DNA from: Nitrospirota bacterium
Lineage (GTDB): Bacteria; Nitrospirota; Thermodesulfovibrionia; Thermodesulfovibrionales; UBA6898
Length of the DNA: 64,000 nucleotides
Assembly (NCBI GenBank): GCA_021811105.1
Contig: JAJZPM010000002.1
Span: 186,001-250,000, forward strand
Direction of reading: 5' to 3'
The position numbers and the translations under genes are program-made. The notes under the pieces were generated by a model. The model saw only the letters and a list, made by a program, of their open reading frames with translations, did not search any database and was not told the DNA's origin. Of this stretch, positions 14,999 to 24,631 are shown piece by piece (the first letter of the stretch is position 1; the number at the start of each line of letters is the position of its first letter).

Positions 14999-15508
14999 TC
15001 AATCGGACGAAATTATCTTTCTATAAATGAAGTTGTTCCCTCCGTCAAAAACCGACATGTCAATAGCCCGAATCATAAAGTCATCGGACGGAATCGCCGA
15101 CAGCGCAATCTGGCCGGGGAGATGAGCTCCTCCCACCGAAGCGTCAAACCATTGTTCTCCTCCCCACGGCGATTTTTCCGCTTTGTTCCTCGCAGAGACA
15201 AAGGTAGAGACGACCCCCGCATTGGCAAGTGAATTGTTGTTCCAGGGACCGACCTCGCCGTCCCAGTTTGTGTCAACCTCCAGAAGAACTCCCTGCGGCG
15301 TCCCGGACTTCTTTGCCGCATTGAGCCATCCCTGGAGTTCGGGCTCGGCAGCGGTGGCGGTCCTTTGGACCGTACCCTTACGCGCCCTGTCCTGCATACC
15401 TATATAGCCCGGGATAGCGATGGCGGCAAGGATGCCGATGATCGCCACAACGATCAGAAGTTCGATAAGGGTAAAACCTTTCCTGTTGTGAATAAATCCT
15501 GTTTTCAT
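14999..15508 (-). CDS. Type IV pilin-like protein (copy 2)
   Basis: A 169-aa prepilin with a short basic leader and the class III signal: RKGFTLIELLIVVAIIGILA, cleaved after the Gly before Phe, with Glu at +5. The hydrophobic helix forms the pilus core, and AIAIPGYIGMQDRARKG continues the alpha-1 spine. The soluble domain is very similar to the upstream paralog at 15594-16100 (shared SGTPQG, LEVDTNWDGEVGP, NAGVVSTFVSARN, PWGG and LSAIP segments), so the pair arose by tandem duplication. ATG 15508 is chosen because the longer open frame would add an unrelated 57-residue extension and read through the hairpin. The family could be major pilin or GspG-like pseudopilin; no Cys pair is seen. Confidence 0.85.
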   Translation of the reverse strand: MKTGFIHNRKGFTLIELLIVVAIIGILAAIAIPGYIGMQDRARKGTVQRTATAAEPELQGWLNAAKKSGTPQGVLLEVDTNWDGEVGPWNNNSLANAGVVSTFVSARNKAEKSPWGGEQWFDASVGGAHLPGQIALSAIPSDDFMIRAIDMSVFDGGNNFIYRKIISSD

Positions 15509-15536
15509 CCCTCTCTCAAAATACACGCTTGAATTT

Positions 15537-15575
15537 GCAAGGGGCGGATATCGTATACCGATATCCGCCCCTTGC
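15537..15575 (-). promoter_or_regulatory. Perfect 17-bp hairpin between the two pilin genes
   Basis: Left arm GCAAGGGGCGGATATCG (15537-15553), loop TATAC, perfectly complementary right arm 15559-15575. It lies between the pilin stop at 15594 and the next pilin start at 15508. No U-run follows on the minus strand, so it looks like a processing, stabilising or partial attenuation element rather than a full terminator. Confidence 0.7.
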
Positions 15576-15593
15576 TGTCCCCGGTTTCCCGGA

Positions 15594-16100
15594 TTAATCA
15601 GCAGAAATGATTTTGCTGTACAGGAAGTTGCTTTTGCCGTCATACACCGACATGCTGATAGAGCGGATCGTATTGTCATCAGCGGGTATCGCCGAGAGAC
15701 TGATCTGTCCCGCTCCAGGTGTCGCTGATTTTAGCCAGAGGTTTCCGCCCCATGGTGATTTGTCGCCGTTGTTCCTTGCGGCGACAAAGGTGTTAACAAC
15801 CCCCGCATTGGCAAGCGCATCATTGTTCATAGGACCGACTGCGCCGTCCCAATCTGTGTCAACCTCCTGGAGAGCTCCCTGAGGCGTCCCTGATTTCTTT
15901 GCTGCTGTCATCCACGCCTGAAGTTCAGGCTCGGACGAGGTCGCAGTCCTCTGGATCGCGCCTTTTCTGCCCCTTTCCTGCATGCCGATGTAGCCCGGGA
16001 TGGCGATAGCAGCAAGGATACCGATGATTGCGACAACAATCAGAAGCTCGATAAGGGTAAAACCTTTTTGCTCCTTAAGATTATTGACTGCCTTGTACAT
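15594..16100 (-). CDS. Type IV pilin-like protein (copy 1)
   Basis: A 168-aa prepilin: leader MYKAVNNLKEQKG, then FTLIELLIVVAIIGILAAIA with Glu+5, the substrate of PilD-type prepilin peptidase. The soluble domain (TSSEPELQAWMTAAKKSGTPQG in pieces, VDTDWDGAVGP, NAGVVNTFVAARN) closely matches copy 2. It is the promoter-proximal copy and has a strong ribosome-binding site, AAAGGAGG, 7 bases before ATG 16100. A sigma-54-like promoter lies about 110 bases upstream. The downstream hairpin suggests higher expression of this copy than of copy 2 and DUF2723. Other pilus assembly genes are not in the window. Confidence 0.88.
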   Translation of the reverse strand: MYKAVNNLKEQKGFTLIELLIVVAIIGILAAIAIPGYIGMQERGRKGAIQRTATSSEPELQAWMTAAKKSGTPQGALQEVDTDWDGAVGPMNNDALANAGVVNTFVAARNNGDKSPWGGNLWLKSATPGAGQISLSAIPADDNTIRSISMSVYDGKSNFLYSKIISAD

Positions 16101-16211
16101 AATCAAACCTCCTTTTTGATTGTTACGACCAAAGGTCGATAAATACCCCGCCAAAAGTACCCTGAATTATCACCTCCTCAAAATAATTGAAGAAACCTAT
16201 GATGTTACAAA

Positions 16212-16600: not shown

Positions 16601-19600
16601 ATGAATTTTATCGGCCTCGATGCAGGATCAGTGAGTGTCAAGCTTGTTTCCCTCGATAATGGTGGTAACAGGCTTCATAGCGTATATCAGAGACATAAGG
16701 GACAGCCCCTTACCGTAGCACTTCAACTTCTGAAAGAAGTGTTGGGCGTTAAGAGTGAGGAGTCAGGAGTCACCCCTCACTTCTCACTTTCACTTACCGG
16801 GTCGGCGGGCAGGCTTATTGGGTCTGTGCTCGGCCTTGAACCTGTCAACGAAGTTGTAGCATATGCGTATGCCACGCGCAGGCTCTATCCCCGGATAAGG
16901 ACCATCATCGAGCTTGGTGGCGAGGACTCGAAGCTCATTATGCTCGGAGAGGGTTCCGGCGCCGCCAAAGATTTCTCGATGAACTCGGTATGCGCGGCCG
17001 GCACCGGCTCATTCCTGGACCAGCAGGCCGAAAGGCTGAGGCTTTCGATAGAAGAATTCAGCGAATTATGCCTCAAATCGAAGAATCCCCCCCGCATCGC
17101 AGGAAGATGCAGCGTCTTTGCAAAGTCCGACATGATCCATCTTCAGCAGATCGCCAGCCCAATGGAAGATATCGTTGCAGGGCTCTGCTTTGCTGTTGCC
17201 CGGAACTTTAAAGGTTCGATTGCGCGCGGCAGGGAGATAAAATCTCCTGTCTCTTTCCAGGGCGGGGTGGCGGCAAACGCCGGGATGGTCAGGGCATTTA
17301 GAGAAATCTTCTGCCTCGATGAACTCTTTGTTCCGGAAGAGCATGCCCTCATGGGCGCCTTCGGAGCGGCAATGAAGAACCTCGATTCAGGGGCGAAACA
17401 GACGTTCGACCTGAAGAAACTGGAGGACTTCATCAGTTCGGCAAGGCCTGCGGAAAAAGGTCACCGTCCACTCATCGGAGAGGGGGACCGGTTCTCTGAA
17501 AGACACCTCAAAGACAGTGAGGAGATAGGAGTGAGGAGTAAGGAGTCACCCCCCCCACGCCTCTCGCCTCACACTTCACGTGTGAAAGCCTATCTCGGTA
17601 TCGATATAGGTTCGATAAGCACGAATCTTGCCGTCATCGATGAAGACTGCAGACTGCTCGCAAAGCGTTATCTCATGACAGCAGGCAGGCCTATCGAGGC
17701 GGTCAAACAGGGGCTCGAGGAAATTGGCCGGGAGATCGGCGACATAGTCGAGATCGTAGGCGTCGGCACGACAGGCTCGGGCAGATACATGATCGCGGAT
17801 TACGTAGGCGCGGACATTGTAAAGAATGAGATCACGGCGCAGGCGACCGCAGCAGCATTCATTGATAAGGAAGTAGACACGATCTTCGAGATAGGCGGCC
17901 AGGATTCGAAATATATTTCGCTGAGGGACGGCGTGATCGCCGATTTCGAGATGAACAAGGCATGCGCAGCCGGCACCGGCTCCTTCCTCGAAGAACAGGC
18001 CGAGAAGCTGAGCATCCCGATAAAACTCGAATTCCAGAAGCTTGCCCTGAAGTCGGGAAATCCCTGCAGGCTCGGAGAGCGCTGCACGGTCTTTATGGAA
18101 AATTCCCTGATGTCAAACCTGCAGCGGGGCGCCGGAAGAGAAGACCTCCTGGCGGGACTTGCGTATTCGATCGTGCAGAATTACATAAACCGCGTAGTCG
18201 GCAAGCGGCCGATCGGGCGGAAGATATTCTTCCAGGGTGGGGTGGCCTTCAACAAATCGGTCGTCGCCGCCTTTGAAAAGTATCTGGGTATGGAGATAAC
18301 CGTTCCGCCCAACCACGACGTCACAGGTGCGATCGGAATGGCTCTGATCGCAAAAAAACAGAGGGAAGACAAGAAAGAGGTAAGGAGTAAGGAGTCAGGG
18401 GTCAGGGCTAAGCACCCCCTCACCAGCTTTAAGGGCTTTGAGTTGTCGAAAAGACCTTATGAGATATCTTCCTTCGAGTGCAAGGGGTGCCCGAATGTCT
18501 GCGAGATCAACAGGGTGAAGGTTGAGGGCGAAAAGGGATATCTCTTCTACGGCGGAAGGTGCGAGAAGTATGACGTGAAGAAGAACAGGCAGGAGAACAA
18601 CCTTCCCGACCTATTCGCGCTCCGGGAAGACCTCCTCTGGAAGGCACACCTCAACTACAGTGAACAGTTCAAAGTGAAGAGTGAAAAGGCAGAGGATGAA
18701 GACCACGCACCTCACACCTCGCGCCTCGCGCCTCAAACTGTTCGCTCTTCACGTCCCAAGATCGGTATCCCTTACGTCTTTTACTTCCATGATTTTCTCC
18801 CGTTCTGGTCGACATTACTGTGGGAACTCGGATTTGAGGTCGAGGTCTCGGGGAAAACAAACAGAAAGATCGTCGACCTGGGGCTCGAGTCGGTGCTCTC
18901 GGAGACCTGCTTCCCGGTAAAGACCGCGCACGGCCACATCAAGCACCTGATCGACAACGGCGTGGACACGATCTTTATGCCGAGCTTCGTGAACCTGAAC
19001 CTTCCCGACGACACCTTCGAAAGGGGATTCGCATGCCCTTATACCCAGACTATCCCTTACTCCGCCAGGGTCGCCTTTGAAAATGGAAAGTTCCTGACAC
19101 CGGTCATCGACCTCAGCAGGGGAGACGAATTCATTAAAAAGGAATTGAAAAAAGTTTTCGGGGCTTTCGGCGTCAAGGCTTCTGAAATCTCGCGGGCCTA
19201 TGACATCGCCCGCGGTGCCCAGGAAGCATTTCTGACAGAGATCAGGGATGAGGGCAAGAGACTCCTCTCGGCATTGAAGGAAAGAACTGTGGTGATAGTC
19301 GGGCGGGCCTACAATTCGTTCGACAAGGGAATGAACCTCAATATTCCACGGAAATTGGCCGACCTTGGCGTGATGGCGGTCCCGATGGACTTTCTGCCGA
19401 TGGAACCTTCCAGTATCGACAGGGACTGGCCGAACATGTACTGGCGGGCCGGTCAGCGGATACTCAGCGCGGCGAGGCTCGCCAGGGCAAACCCTCTGCT
19501 CTATGCGGTGTACATAGGAAATTTTTCCTGCGGCCCTGACTCTTTCATCATCAAGTTCTTTGAGGAAGAGATGTCCGGGAAGCCCTACCTTCACCTTGAA

Positions 19601-20947
19601 ATCGACGCCCATAGCGCCGACGCAGGTGCGATCACGAGATGCGAGGCCTTTCTTGACAGCGTCGGGAACCACGGAGTCAGGCGTCCGGAGCCGGAAAAAA
19701 GTGCGAAGTCAGGAGTAAGGAGTAAAGAGTTAAGAAATGAAAACACCTCACGCCTCGCGTCTTACTCCAAACGGACTGTTTATATCCCGCACATGTCCGA
19801 CCATGCATTTGCCCTGGCAGCAGCCTTTGAATACTGCGGTGCGGATGCAGAGGTACTTCCCCAATCTACGAAAGAGGCGGTCGATCTCGGGAAGAAGTTT
19901 GTCTCCGGGAAAGAGTGTTACCCTTGCGCAGTGACCACCGGCGATATGGTGAGAAAGATCCAGGAACGCGGGTTTGTGCCGTCCAAATCGGCTTTTTTCA
20001 TGCCCTCGGGTTCGGGCCCGTGCAGGTTCGGGCAGTACAATGTATTTCATCGTCTGGTGATAAGGGAACTCGGATACGAGGACATCCCGGTGCTGTCCCC
20101 GAACCAGGACGAGAACTTCTACGAACACCTTGGGGTCATCGGCGGTAATTTCGCCATGAGATCCTGGCAGGGTATTATTGCGATAGAACTGCTCACCAAG
20201 TGTCTCCATGAAACGAGGCCCTACGAAGTTGAAAAAGGCTCTTCGGATGCCCTTTACGAAGAGTATCTGCGAAAGGCGTGTAAATCGATAAAAGGCGCCG
20301 ATGGTAATATCGAGAGCCTCCTCAGAAAGGCGCGGGCCGATTTCGAACACTTGAGCACAATCAAGGACCCGAAGCCGCTGATCGGCATCGTCGGCGAGAT
20401 ATTCGTGAGATCCAACAAGTTCTCGAACGAGGACCTGGTCAGAAAGGTCGAGGCGCTGGGCGGCGAGGCATATCTGTCCCCTGTGGAAGAGTGGATATGC
20501 TACATCAACCATATGGCATTCCGTAAGGTCTTGATAAAAAAAGATTGGTCTGGTATGATTAAACTTCTGCTGAAGACGTTCTTCCAGAAGAGAATCGAGC
20601 ACGGATTCGGCAAGAATTTTGAAGGGTTCTTGCGGAACCTTCATGAACCCGACTCGAAGGAGTTGCTGGCAAAGGCGGGTCCTTATCTCCACTCCTCATT
20701 TGAAGGAGAGGCGATCCTCAGCATCGGCAAGAGCATCGACCTTATCACGAGAGGGGCGTCAGGCATCATCAATGCGATGCCTTTCGGCTGCATGCCGGGC
20801 ACGATCGTAAGCGGGCTGATGCGGGGAGTCGGTACAGACTTCGGAATCCCGTGCCTGAGTCTCCCTTATGACGGGACAGAATCGTTGACAACGGAAATTC
20901 AGCTTGAGGCGTTCATAGACCAGGCGAAGGAGTTTAAGAGAAGATAA
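16601..20947 (+). CDS. Large acyl-CoA dehydratase activase-type fusion protein
   Basis: A 1448-aa protein of the BadF/BadG/BcrA/BcrD (ASKHA) group fused to DUF2229/HgdB-like regions. Two ATPase modules are visible. The first (about 1-280) has GLDAGSVSVKLV, ELGGEDSKLIML and VCAAGTGSFLDQQAERL. The second (about 330-585) has GIDIGSISTNLAVI, EIGGQDSKYISL and ACAAGTGSFLEEQAEKL. The conserved Cys in each CAAGTGSFL and GRC/ERC segment would ligate a bridging [4Fe-4S] cluster. DUF2229 (about 605-960) has CKGCPNVCEINR, and a C-terminal part (about 1060-1440) resembles dehydratase D-component proteins. By analogy it performs ATP-driven low-potential electron transfer, but the partner is unknown. Five in-frame palindromic repeats interrupt the linkers. 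The ATG lacks a clear ribosome-binding site. Confidence 0.85.
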   Translation: MNFIGLDAGSVSVKLVSLDNGGNRLHSVYQRHKGQPLTVALQLLKEVLGVKSEESGVTPHFSLSLTGSAGRLIGSVLGLEPVNEVVAYAYATRRLYPRIRTIIELGGEDSKLIMLGEGSGAAKDFSMNSVCAAGTGSFLDQQAERLRLSIEEFSELCLKSKNPPRIAGRCSVFAKSDMIHLQQIASPMEDIVAGLCFAVARNFKGSIARGREIKSPVSFQGGVAANAGMVRAFREIFCLDELFVPEEHALMGAFGAAMKNLDSGAKQTFDLKKLEDFISSARPAEKGHRPLIGEGDRFSERHLKDSEEIGVRSKESPPPRLSPHTSRVKAYLGIDIGSISTNLAVIDEDCRLLAKRYLMTAGRPIEAVKQGLEEIGREIGDIVEIVGVGTTGSGRYMIADYVGADIVKNEITAQATAAAFIDKEVDTIFEIGGQDSKYISLRDGVIADFEMNKACAAGTGSFLEEQAEKLSIPIKLEFQKLALKSGNPCRLGERCTVFMENSLMSNLQRGAGREDLLAGLAYSIVQNYINRVVGKRPIGRKIFFQGGVAFNKSVVAAFEKYLGMEITVPPNHDVTGAIGMALIAKKQREDKKEVRSKESGVRAKHPLTSFKGFELSKRPYEISSFECKGCPNVCEINRVKVEGEKGYLFYGGRCEKYDVKKNRQENNLPDLFALREDLLWKAHLNYSEQFKVKSEKAEDEDHAPHTSRLAPQTVRSSRPKIGIPYVFYFHDFLPFWSTLLWELGFEVEVSGKTNRKIVDLGLESVLSETCFPVKTAHGHIKHLIDNGVDTIFMPSFVNLNLPDDTFERGFACPYTQTIPYSARVAFENGKFLTPVIDLSRGDEFIKKELKKVFGAFGVKASEISRAYDIARGAQEAFLTEIRDEGKRLLSALKERTVVIVGRAYNSFDKGMNLNIPRKLADLGVMAVPMDFLPMEPSSIDRDWPNMYWRAGQRILSAARLARANPLLYAVYIGNFSCGPDSFIIKFFEEEMSGKPYLHLEIDAHSADAGAITRCEAFLDSVGNHGVRRPEPEKSAKSGVRSKELRNENTSRLASYSKRTVYIPHMSDHAFALAAAFEYCGADAEVLPQSTKEAVDLGKKFVSGKECYPCAVTTGDMVRKIQERGFVPSKSAFFMPSGSGPCRFGQYNVFHRLVIRELGYEDIPVLSPNQDENFYEHLGVIGGNFAMRSWQGIIAIELLTKCLHETRPYEVEKGSSDALYEEYLRKACKSIKGADGNIESLLRKARADFEHLSTIKDPKPLIGIVGEIFVRSNKFSNEDLVRKVEALGGEAYLSPVEEWICYINHMAFRKVLIKKDWSGMIKLLLKTFFQKRIEHGFGKNFEGFLRNLHEPDSKELLAKAGPYLHSSFEGEAILSIGKSIDLITRGASGIINAMPFGCMPGTIVSGLMRGVGTDFGIPCLSLPYDGTESLTTEIQLEAFIDQAKEFKRR
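16748..16795 (+). repeat. In-frame palindromic repeat, copy 1
   Basis: Encodes residues about 50-65 of the activase fusion (GVKSEESGVTPHFSLSL region). The purine-rich left arm (AGTGAGGAGTCAGGAGTCA) is followed by a pyrimidine-rich right arm (CTCACTTCTCACTTTCAC) roughly complementary to it. It sits in a loop of the first ATPase module. Confidence 0.65.
17514..17586 (+). repeat. In-frame palindromic repeat, copy 2
   Basis: Encodes about residues 305-329, the linker between the two ATPase modules. Left arm GTGAGGAGTAAGGAGTCA, then an eight-C run, then right arm CGCCTCTCGCCTCACACTTC. The peptide is the low-complexity type GVRSKESPPPRLSPHTSR. Confidence 0.7.
18374..18420 (+). repeat. In-frame palindromic repeat, copy 3
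   Basis: Encodes about residues 592-607 between the second ATPase module and DUF2229. It consists mainly of left-arm units (GTAAGGAGTAAGGAGTCAG then GGTCAGGGCTAAG), giving the peptide EVRSKESGVRAKHP. The right arm is short. Confidence 0.6.
18664..18755 (+). repeat. In-frame palindromic repeat, copy 4
   Basis: Encodes about residues 688-718 inside DUF2229. The outer arms GTGAAGAGTGAA and TTCGCTCTTCAC are inverted repeats with one mismatch, and the inside contains repeated CCTCGCGCCTCGCG-type units. The peptide is FKVKSEKAEDEDHAPHTSR followed by LAPQTVRSSR. Confidence 0.7.
19699..19772 (+). repeat. In-frame palindromic repeat, copy 5
   Basis: Encodes about residues 1033-1057 at the junction before the C-terminal dehydratase-like part. 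Left arm GTCAGGAGTAAGGAGTAAAG; right arm CACCTCACGCCTCGCGTCTT then ACTCC. Peptide KSGVRSKELRNENTSRLASY. Confidence 0.68.
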
Positions 20948-23599: not shown

Positions 23600-24631
23600 A
23601 TGTCTCTCAGGGATATCATAGGGCAGGGAAAGGCGATTGAGATGCTGTTGGGGATACTCAAGAGACAGAGTGTCGCGTCCTCCTATCTTTTCTGCGGTGA
23701 GTCGGGAGTAGGAAAGAAGGCGGCGGCGATAAATTTTGCTAAGGCCATGAACTGCTTAAAAACAGTTGCGAGACACGAGTCGCGAGTTGGGAGTGAAAAT
23801 ATTGTTCGGAACTTGGAACTCAGAACTCGGAACTCAGAACCAGTTCAAATCGACGCCTGCGACGAATGCGAATCCTGTCTCAAGATTGAAGCAGGGACGC
23901 ATCCGGATTTTCTGCTGGTTTCCCCTGAAGACCGGCAGATCCGGATAGAAGAGATACGTGCAGTTGACGAGGCGCTCTCGTTCAAACCCTTTGAAGGCAG
24001 AAAAAAAGTTGTCGTGGTAGACGACGCCGAGGCGATGAATATCTCGGCTGCAAACGCCTTCCTCAAGACTCTTGAAGAACCCCCTGAAGACAGTGTCATC
24101 ATTCTGGTCTCGTCAAAGCCGGACCTTCTCCCCGCCACGATCAGGTCGCGCTGCTCGAGGATCAACTTTGTCCCTCTGACGACCGATTCGTGTATGAAGG
24201 TGATAGGTCGGACAATTGAAGGACAGGAGGCGCTTGAACTCGTCGCCAGGCTGTCGATGGGACGACCGGGCTACGCACTGTCCGCTGATCTGTCGGAAGA
24301 AAGGTCTTGGTTTCTCGGTCTTCTAAAGGGCATGCTCGGCGCCGAAAAAGACGGCTGGACCTCCAGGGATGACATGGAGCGCTGGTTCGACCAGGGCCTG
24401 ATCTTTTTCAGGGACCTTGCTGTTTTGGCGATAACAGGCGATCCTGCCCGTCTTATCAATATGGATCTTAAAAGCTATATGGCCGGTTTCAGCAAATCCC
24501 TTGATATAAAAGGTATAATATATATCCATCAGGAGCTGAGCCGCCTGAGAAGGCTGCTCCTGTTTAATCTCAACAAGTCCATAACGTGGAACTATACCGC
24601 TTCGTTGTTGCGAAAGGAACTTACCGGATAG
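23600..24631 (+). CDS. holB: DNA polymerase III subunit delta-prime (with in-frame insertion)
   Basis: A 343-aa clamp-loader subunit. The AAA+ P-loop is GESGVGKKAAAINFAKAMN (about 34-52), VVVVDDAEAMN is Walker B, LKTLEEPPED is the sensor/SRC region and RSRCSRI the arginine-finger-like motif. The zinc-binding loop is interrupted. The first Cys (AMNC) and the CDECESC cluster, normally close together, are separated by about 30 residues encoded by a palindromic repeat (23758-23850). The frame is kept and the rest of the protein looks intact, so function is probably tolerated. Confidence 0.92.
   Translation: MSLRDIIGQGKAIEMLLGILKRQSVASSYLFCGESGVGKKAAAINFAKAMNCLKTVARHESRVGSENIVRNLELRTRNSEPVQIDACDECESCLKIEAGTHPDFLLVSPEDRQIRIEEIRAVDEALSFKPFEGRKKVVVVDDAEAMNISAANAFLKTLEEPPEDSVIILVSSKPDLLPATIRSRCSRINFVPLTTDSCMKVIGRTIEGQEALELVARLSMGRPGYALSADLSEERSWFLGLLKGMLGAEKDGWTSRDDMERWFDQGLIFFRDLAVLAITGDPARLINMDLKSYMAGFSKSLDIKGIIYIHQELSRLRRLLLFNLNKSITWNYTASLLRKELTG
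23758..23850 (+). repeat. In-frame repeat insertion within holB
   Basis: Repeat-type DNA built from GAGTCGCGAGTTGGGAGTG-like units, then TTGGAACTCAGAACTCGG and its echo, encoding about residues 54-84 (ESRVGSENIVRNLELRTRNS). It falls inside the zinc-finger loop. Composition and unit structure are like the activase insertions, though the unit sequence differs somewhat. Confidence 0.62.

What the first reader, a model, noticed from the sequence alone, without database searches (positions are those of the whole stretch)
16748..19772. Family of in-frame palindromic repeats inserted into one gene
Five segments of the activase gene (16748-16795, 17514-17586, 18374-18420, 18664-18755, 19699-19772) contain runs of GAGGAGTAAGGAGTCA-like units, usually followed by a roughly complementary CTCAC/CTTCTCAC arm. 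All five stay in frame and fall in linkers or loops between conserved motifs, encoding odd peptides of the VRSKES/VKSEK type. Seen directly: unit structure, inverted arms and frame. Inference: a selfish or recombinogenic repeat that tolerates protein-coding sites because neither strand contains stops in the used frame. Comparable intragenic palindromes are known in other bacteria (for example Rickettsia RPE), but I cannot say that this family has been described.
Basis: partly seen in the sequence, partly recalled or inferred. Interest (0 to 1): 0.8.

Follow-up and report, generated by a model that had tools for sequence, protein, structure and literature searches.

The report
Seven-base repeat hairpins inside genes
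Short DNA arrays built from seven-base units, often followed by an inverted copy, are scattered through this bacterium and many relatives and sit in frame inside essential genes, in flexible linkers and even in protein export signals; seven-base repeats are known in bacterial DNA between genes, but I found no earlier report of them as a major, fast-changing source of new protein segments.

Summary
The window is from a Thermodesulfovibrionales-type Nitrospirota genome; the gene (16601-20947) is a fused CoA-dehydratase activase. The five segments are tandem 7-bp arrays (AGTNARR type); four have an inverted arm, one (18374-18420) does not. In 80 orthologs the five sites are variable linkers: 97 period-7 arrays fall there and 12 elsewhere; period 8 gives 23, period 14 gives 54, other periods from 4 to 15 none. 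Families differ between genomes, match the family dispersed in each genome, and swap between close relatives. In this genome composite copies sit in UvrC and UvrA; in relatives related arrays interrupt RecN, RecJ, IleRS, ProC and HolB. TolB's signal peptide is built of heptamers in 14 of 19 array-bearing genomes and 0 of 9 others. No linked transposase or reverse transcriptase was found. Best reading: dispersed heptanucleotide-repeat elements, copied around and remodelled in 7-nt steps, filtered by selection. A new variant of known heptanucleotide repeats that works like Rickettsia RPE but is not one.

The parts
16601..20947 (+). Host gene: fused CoA-dehydratase activase (two BcrAD_BadFG ATPase domains, DUF2229, HGD-D-like segment), 1448 aa
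16753..16796 (+). Site 1: AGAGTGAGGAGTCAGGAGTCA, loop CCCC, TCACTTCTCACTTTCACTT; best hairpin of the five; absent in the 97% relative, where the right part is the native FSLSLTG coding sequence
17514..17586 (+). Site 2: (AGTGAGG)n arm 17516-17546 plus CCTCRCR-type inverted arm; inter-domain linker; in the 97% relative replaced by another heptamer family (GAGTAAT / ATCACTC)
18374..18420 (+). Site 3: single-arm heptamer array GAGGTAAGGAGTAAGGAGTCAGGGGTCAGG; no supported hairpin; the 97% relative has a longer two-loop version
18659..18755 (+). Site 4: AGTGAAN arm 18659-18688, then CCTCGCG-type arm 18702-18753; linker before DUF2229
19699..19772 (+). Site 5: AGTAAGG arm 19705-19738, spacer, CACCTCACGCCTCGCG arm; retained in the 97% relative with two base changes in the element; 77% identical over 50 bp to the UvrC copy, spacer included
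23806..23840 (+). Heptamer array of another family (GGAACTC/GGAACTT) in holB (23600-24631), in the loop before the DACDECESC motif; relatives carry other repeats at this site

Best explanation
These are copies of a class of dispersed heptanucleotide-repeat elements: two to about eight tandem 7-bp units, often an A-rich spacer, often a second array that is an imperfect inverted version of the first. Shown: they are scattered through the genome inside and outside genes, each genome has its own dominant unit families, the same linker in close relatives can hold unrelated families or none, and genic copies are open in the frame used. Inferred: copies spread within a genome as composite units (ectopic copying or insertion) and are then lengthened, shortened and rewritten in 7-nt steps by slippage and fold-back template switching during replication or repair. 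Selection removes every copy that breaks a frame or a fold, which leaves them in linkers, loops and signal peptides. The peptides are most likely tolerated spacers without a conserved function; the enzyme behind the 7-nt step is unknown.
For: Period 7 is dominant in the genome and in the linkers, with period 8 a distant second. Across 80 orthologs, 97 of 109 period-7 arrays fall in five linkers that make up 9% of the gene. Units at different sites of one genome share a family (at most 1 mismatch) in 17.4% of pairs, against 6.7% when genome labels are permuted (maximum 12.6% of 300). Genome-wide counts follow the linker family: ACGCATC 27/15/8/16 in the four genomes whose linkers carry it, TTCAAAG 79 in L111's genome against at most 21 elsewhere, 0-2 in genomes without linker arrays. 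Composite copies including the spacer occur in UvrC, UvrA and site 5 of this genome (E 2e-9 and 1e-3) and, for the GAGTTAW family, in many unrelated genes of relatives. Second arms are closer to the inverse of the first than expected (2.45 against 3.17 mismatches, minimum of 500 reassignments 2.84). Turnover: relatives with 92-97% core identity have gained, lost, lengthened or swapped arrays at the same sites. Frame filter: N of GAGTTAN never makes TGA or TAA in coding arrays (0 of 34 and 0 of 23), is mixed in the free phase (19 A, 11 T), and non-coding arrays are open in 12% of sense frames. TolB signal peptides are heptamer arrays in 14/19 array-bearing genomes and 0/9 others, p = 0.0006, none in the mature part.
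Against: No mechanism was observed. Copying and in-place generation are not cleanly separated: in YggS the array replaces native sequence with a net gain of only about 2 residues, which fits rewriting better than insertion. Spacers are shared in some copies but most are merely A-rich. ORFs are stop-free by definition, so the phase result partly follows from how coding arrays were chosen; the informative part is the contrast with non-coding arrays and the conserved identity of the genes. The G014 sample was chosen by one pattern.
Confidence: 0.62

Rival explanations
1. A true non-autonomous mobile palindrome (RPE, MITE or REP type) with defined ends, moved by a transposase or reverse transcriptase in trans.
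For: Dispersed composite copies with similar spacers, genome-specific families, presence/absence between close relatives, in-frame insertion.
Against: No conserved end: a C[AC]GTGA left end seen in one sample failed in an independent one (8 of 71). No conserved loop (GATAAAGA flanked by arrays in 2 of 66 occurrences). Arm number and unit sequence vary freely. Y1 transposase (PF01797) and RVT_1 (PF00078) are about as common in array-free as in array-rich genomes (15/17 rich against 12/18 free; about 11 of each), and the array-rich G008 has neither.
Confidence: 0.15
2. Purely local origin: each array is made in place by replication slippage with a 7-nt bias and fold-back template switching, with no movement between loci; similar units arise because the same bias acts everywhere.
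For: Period-7 bias is widespread in prokaryotes (PMC6344855, PMC4692102); arrays differ in length between close relatives; YggS array replaces rather than adds; site 1 abuts a native CACTTTTCACTTTC stretch.
Against: Same unit families, and similar spacers, at unrelated loci of one genome but not of its relatives. Slippage alone in coding DNA should favour multiples of 3; none were found at the linkers for periods 6, 9, 12 and 15.
Confidence: 0.2
3. The arrays are selected binding or regulatory sites (nucleoid protein, regulator, uptake or repair signal) placed wherever the host can bear them, as proposed for heptanucleotide elements of Geobacter metallireducens.
For: Heptanucleotide elements within and between genes were annotated as putative global regulator sites in G. 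metallireducens (PMC2700814).
Against: Unit sequence changes completely between close relatives and even between sites of one gene; no conserved motif; no shared position relative to genes.
Confidence: 0.08
4. Artefact of metagenome assembly or binning.
For: The genomes are MAGs, and some contigs of G017 (C26, C33) are filled by GTTCAAG arrays at their ends.
Against: The same site-5 element is in an independently assembled relative with two base changes; 31 of 80 genomes from many projects show arrays in the same linkers, always in frame; assembly error would not keep frames.
Confidence: 0.02

Closest known systems
Long heptanucleotide simple sequence repeats of bacteria (LSSR of Mrazek; STRR of cyanobacteria; GGGAATC in Xanthomonas/Nostoc; TAACTGA in Beggiatoaceae)
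   Same: 7-bp tandem units, dispersed, lineage-specific, period 7 over-represented; [quoted passage not shown]
   Different: Those are reported as mainly intergenic, with coding repeats mostly in multiples of three (PMC4679880 citing Mrazek 2007). Here arrays sit in frame in conserved genes, often as imperfect inverted pairs, with frame-locked unit variants.
Rickettsia palindromic elements (RPE), above all RPE-4/6/7
   Same: In-frame palindromic inserts of about 85-190 bp in housekeeping genes; different RPE groups at the same locus in orthologs; sites called possible hotspots (PMC3767692)
   Different: RPE have family consensus sequences found by HMM; here no consensus beyond a 7-bp period, arms vary freely, single-arm copies exist, and families change between close relatives.
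Geobacter metallireducens heptanucleotide elements (GGGACCG)4 and class 3 fold-back sites (MTYCTGA)5
   Same: Tandem heptamers within and between genes, some several per gene, some drawn as fold-back structures (PMC2700814)
   Different: Described as putative regulatory elements; in-frame effects on proteins, linker placement and turnover were not described in the text read.
Borg tandem repeats (amino-acid tandem repeats in ORFs)
   Same: Fast-evolving nucleotide repeats that create new protein segments (PMC9879509)
   Different: All Borg repeats in ORFs have unit lengths divisible by three; here the unit is 7 (or 8).

Membership tests
Bacterial heptanucleotide tandem repeats (LSSR/STRR type) | Tandem units of 7 bp more frequent than other periods | tested here: met
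   33 clusters at lag 7 against 0-8 at lags 4-13 and 15 (14 at lag 14) in 850 kb; linkers 97 against 23 (lag 8), 54 (lag 14) and 0 at the rest
Bacterial heptanucleotide tandem repeats (LSSR/STRR type) | Dispersed through the genome | tested here: met
   63 hits against 16 control hits for one family
Bacterial heptanucleotide tandem repeats (LSSR/STRR type) | Mainly in intergenic DNA (a usual property rather than a strict criterion) | tested here: not met
   About half of the 33 clusters lie in ORFs; in a pattern-chosen sample of relatives 52 arrays in ORFs of 150 aa or more, 19 non-coding
Rickettsia palindromic elements (RPE) | In-frame insertion in pre-existing ORFs | tested here: met
   Alignment with 80 orthologs; UvrA alignment to a solved structure
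Rickettsia palindromic elements (RPE) | Palindromic over the element | tested here: inconclusive
   4 of 5 sites have an inverted arm, only site 1 clearly beats shuffles; UvrC z -3.1, UvrA z +2.2
Rickettsia palindromic elements (RPE) | Family consensus sequence shared by copies | tested here: not met
   Units vary freely; no conserved loop or end
REP/RAYT elements | Conserved tetranucleotide-tagged hairpin and a cognate Y1 transposase (RAYT) | tested here: not met
   No association of PF01797 with array load; no fixed hairpin

The most novel reading that the evidence does not exclude
A dedicated but unidentified cellular or mobile activity writes 7-nt (sometimes 8-nt) repeats with fold-back arms into bacterial chromosomes, in lineage-specific sequence families, and is a major source of new linker segments and even of complete signal peptides in conserved proteins.
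Probability: 0.15. Interest if true: 0.9.

Novelty: new variant of a known kind. Interest (0 to 1): 0.62.

Why it matters
Heptamer repeats are the commonest tandem repeats between prokaryotic genes, and their cause has been called unknown (PMC6344855). Here the same periodicity is carried into essential genes, where a 7-nt unit should be costly, with a natural series of close relatives that shows gain, loss and exchange at fixed sites. That makes the origin of the period testable by comparison, and shows a non-triplet repeat feeding new peptide segments, including the signal peptide of TolB, into conserved proteins. It also warns that linker differences between such proteins need not mean adaptation.

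Tried and rejected
(1) Conserved loop motif GATAAAGA: flanked by period-7 DNA in only 2 of 66 genome occurrences; rejected as general. (2) Defined left end C[AC]GTGA: enriched over inner units in one sample, but the proper expectation is background base composition, and an independent sample gave C in 8 of 71; rejected. (3) G-U wobble conservation pointing to an antisense RNA: 24 antisense-type against 3 sense-type mismatches between arms, but A-to-T and A-to-C are nearly as common as A-to-G, so this is A-richness of the first arm; not claimed. (4) RT or Y1-transposase linkage: no association; absence in incomplete MAGs is weak evidence. (5) Plasmid search with a peptide of the NSELRTP type gave mostly weak hits; not used. 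(7) The phase labels printed for classes 1 and 2 are exchanged; class 1 is GTT|ANG (free), class 2 is AGT|TAN.

Full report
What is there. The host gene (16601-20947) encodes a 1448-aa fused CoA-dehydratase activase with two BcrAD_BadFG domains and DUF2229. The nearest named relatives are Nitrospirota of the Thermodesulfovibrionales. The five segments are tandem arrays with a period of 7. An inverted arm follows at sites 1, 2, 4 and 5, not convincingly at site 3; folding against shuffles gives z -2.6, -1.6, +1.2, -1.9, -1.1. In 850 kb of the same genome, period 7 gives 33 clusters while every other period from 4 to 15 gives 0 to 8, apart from 14, which is twice seven and gives 14. A sixth array, of another unit, lies in holB at 23806-23840.

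They are dispersed. The pattern AGTVARRAGTVARRAGT, with up to one mismatch, has 63 hits in the genome against 16 for the reversed control. The element in uvrC, given whole to a search, finds a copy in uvrA (80% over 65 bp, E 2e-9) and window site 5 (77% over 50 bp, E 1e-3), spacer included (UvrA identified, UvrC). The UvrA copy is an insertion relative to the solved UvrA 3pih.

They sit at variable linkers. I aligned 80 orthologs. At all five places the length varies and relatives hold other repeats, translated as ELRVMSYEL...NSKLQTPN, ALSVMRNEL...ITHHASRITHHAS, SAVSSQQSAV, FNVQGSKFK, SPIHPFTHSP (octamer) and PPLxKGG (another hairpin family). Period-7 arrays: 97 at the five sites, 12 elsewhere; period 8: 23; period 14: 54; all other periods from 4 to 15: none at the sites; 31 of 80 genomes are affected and the sites make up 9% of the gene. 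Four of the five sites lie between recognised domains; site 1 is a loop inside the first.

They are lineage-specific and change fast. Loci of about half of the relatives show no arrays at all. In the others, unit families at different sites of one genome agree more often than by chance (17.4% against 6.7%), and the family in the linkers is the one abundant in that genome. Between this genome and a relative with 97% core identity, site 1 is gained or lost, site 2 holds a different family, site 3 differs in length, site 4 differs in content, and site 5 is retained. L049 and L098 (92%) have likewise exchanged families.

Frame. For the GAGTTAW family in relatives, the variable base never makes a stop in coding copies (T 0 of 34 where T gives TGA; A 0 of 23 where A gives TAA) and is mixed where it is free; non-coding arrays are open in 12% of sense frames, coding ones in the one used. 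Coding copies are thus the survivors of a filter. Part of this follows from how ORFs are defined; the contrast with non-coding arrays is what carries weight. Affected genes include RecN, RecJ, IleRS, ProC, YggS, PrmC and HolB (names other than YggS, UvrA, UvrC and the window's HolB are from my own reading of the sequence). In YggS the array replaces a native stretch with a net gain of about two residues.

Signal peptides. Several arrays in the opposite orientation form signal peptides in this genome (a periplasmic binding protein, TolB, a D-Ala-D-Ala carboxypeptidase). In TolB orthologs the signal-peptide stretch holds a period-7 array in 14 of 19 array-bearing genomes and 0 of 9 others (p = 0.0006); no other period from 4 to 12 appears except one case of 8, and the mature part has none. 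In some, such as G006, the first arm gives a lysine-rich start and the inverted arm the hydrophobic core.

How it may work. Shown: dispersal, period, inverted relation of arms, linker and signal-peptide placement, frame filter, turnover. Inferred: copies move as composite units and are reshaped in 7-nt steps by slippage and fold-back template switching. I could not find an engine: Y1 transposases and RVT_1 reverse transcriptases are not associated with array load, and there is no conserved loop or end.

Comparison. Heptanucleotide repeats are the commonest tandem repeats of prokaryotic intergenic DNA and are unexplained (PMC6344855; PMC4692102; PMC4679880). G. metallireducens has heptamer elements within and between genes (PMC2700814). 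RPE are the nearest analogue in behaviour, including different families at one site (PMC3767692), but lack of a consensus here excludes membership. Borg repeats in ORFs are all multiples of three (PMC9879509), unlike these. Literature searches covered open-access papers only, so an earlier description elsewhere cannot be excluded.

Noticed in passing
L267-L295 (TolB loci), array-bearing genomes: TolB signal peptides are built from heptamer arrays, sometimes as a lysine-rich first arm plus hydrophobic inverted arm.
   Followed up: yes
window 23806-23840 and HolB of relatives (L042, L048, L055, L238): The HolB loop before the zinc-binding cysteines is another hot site: heptamer arrays here and in L238, PPLxKGG-type hairpin repeats in L042, L048 and L055.
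   Followed up: partly
L036, L045, L047, L048, L053 activase linkers: A second in-frame hairpin repeat (CCCCCCTTTACTAAAGGGGGG type, peptide PPLPPFTKGGRGG) shares the linkers with the heptamer arrays.
   Followed up: partly
L045, L060, L066, L098: Octamer arrays (ATTCACCC, GCGCTTCC, AAGTGTCA) replace heptamers at the same sites; period 8 is the only other short period seen.
   Followed up: partly
L087, activase locus: A very long (about 260 bp) array of CAGTCAA/CAGTCGG units.
   Followed up: no
G017 contigs C26, C33: Contig ends are filled with (GTTCAAG)n, so arrays break assemblies and long arrays are probably under-counted.
   Followed up: no
L028 and L029 (G000 C15, near 36000): Heptamer arrays lie between what look like tRNA genes of a tRNA cluster (tRNA identity from sequence reading only).
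   Followed up: no
window 14999-16154, minus strand: Two adjacent paralogous type IV pilin-like genes with the same prepilin leader motif GFTLIELLIVVAIIGILAAIAIPGY.
   Followed up: no
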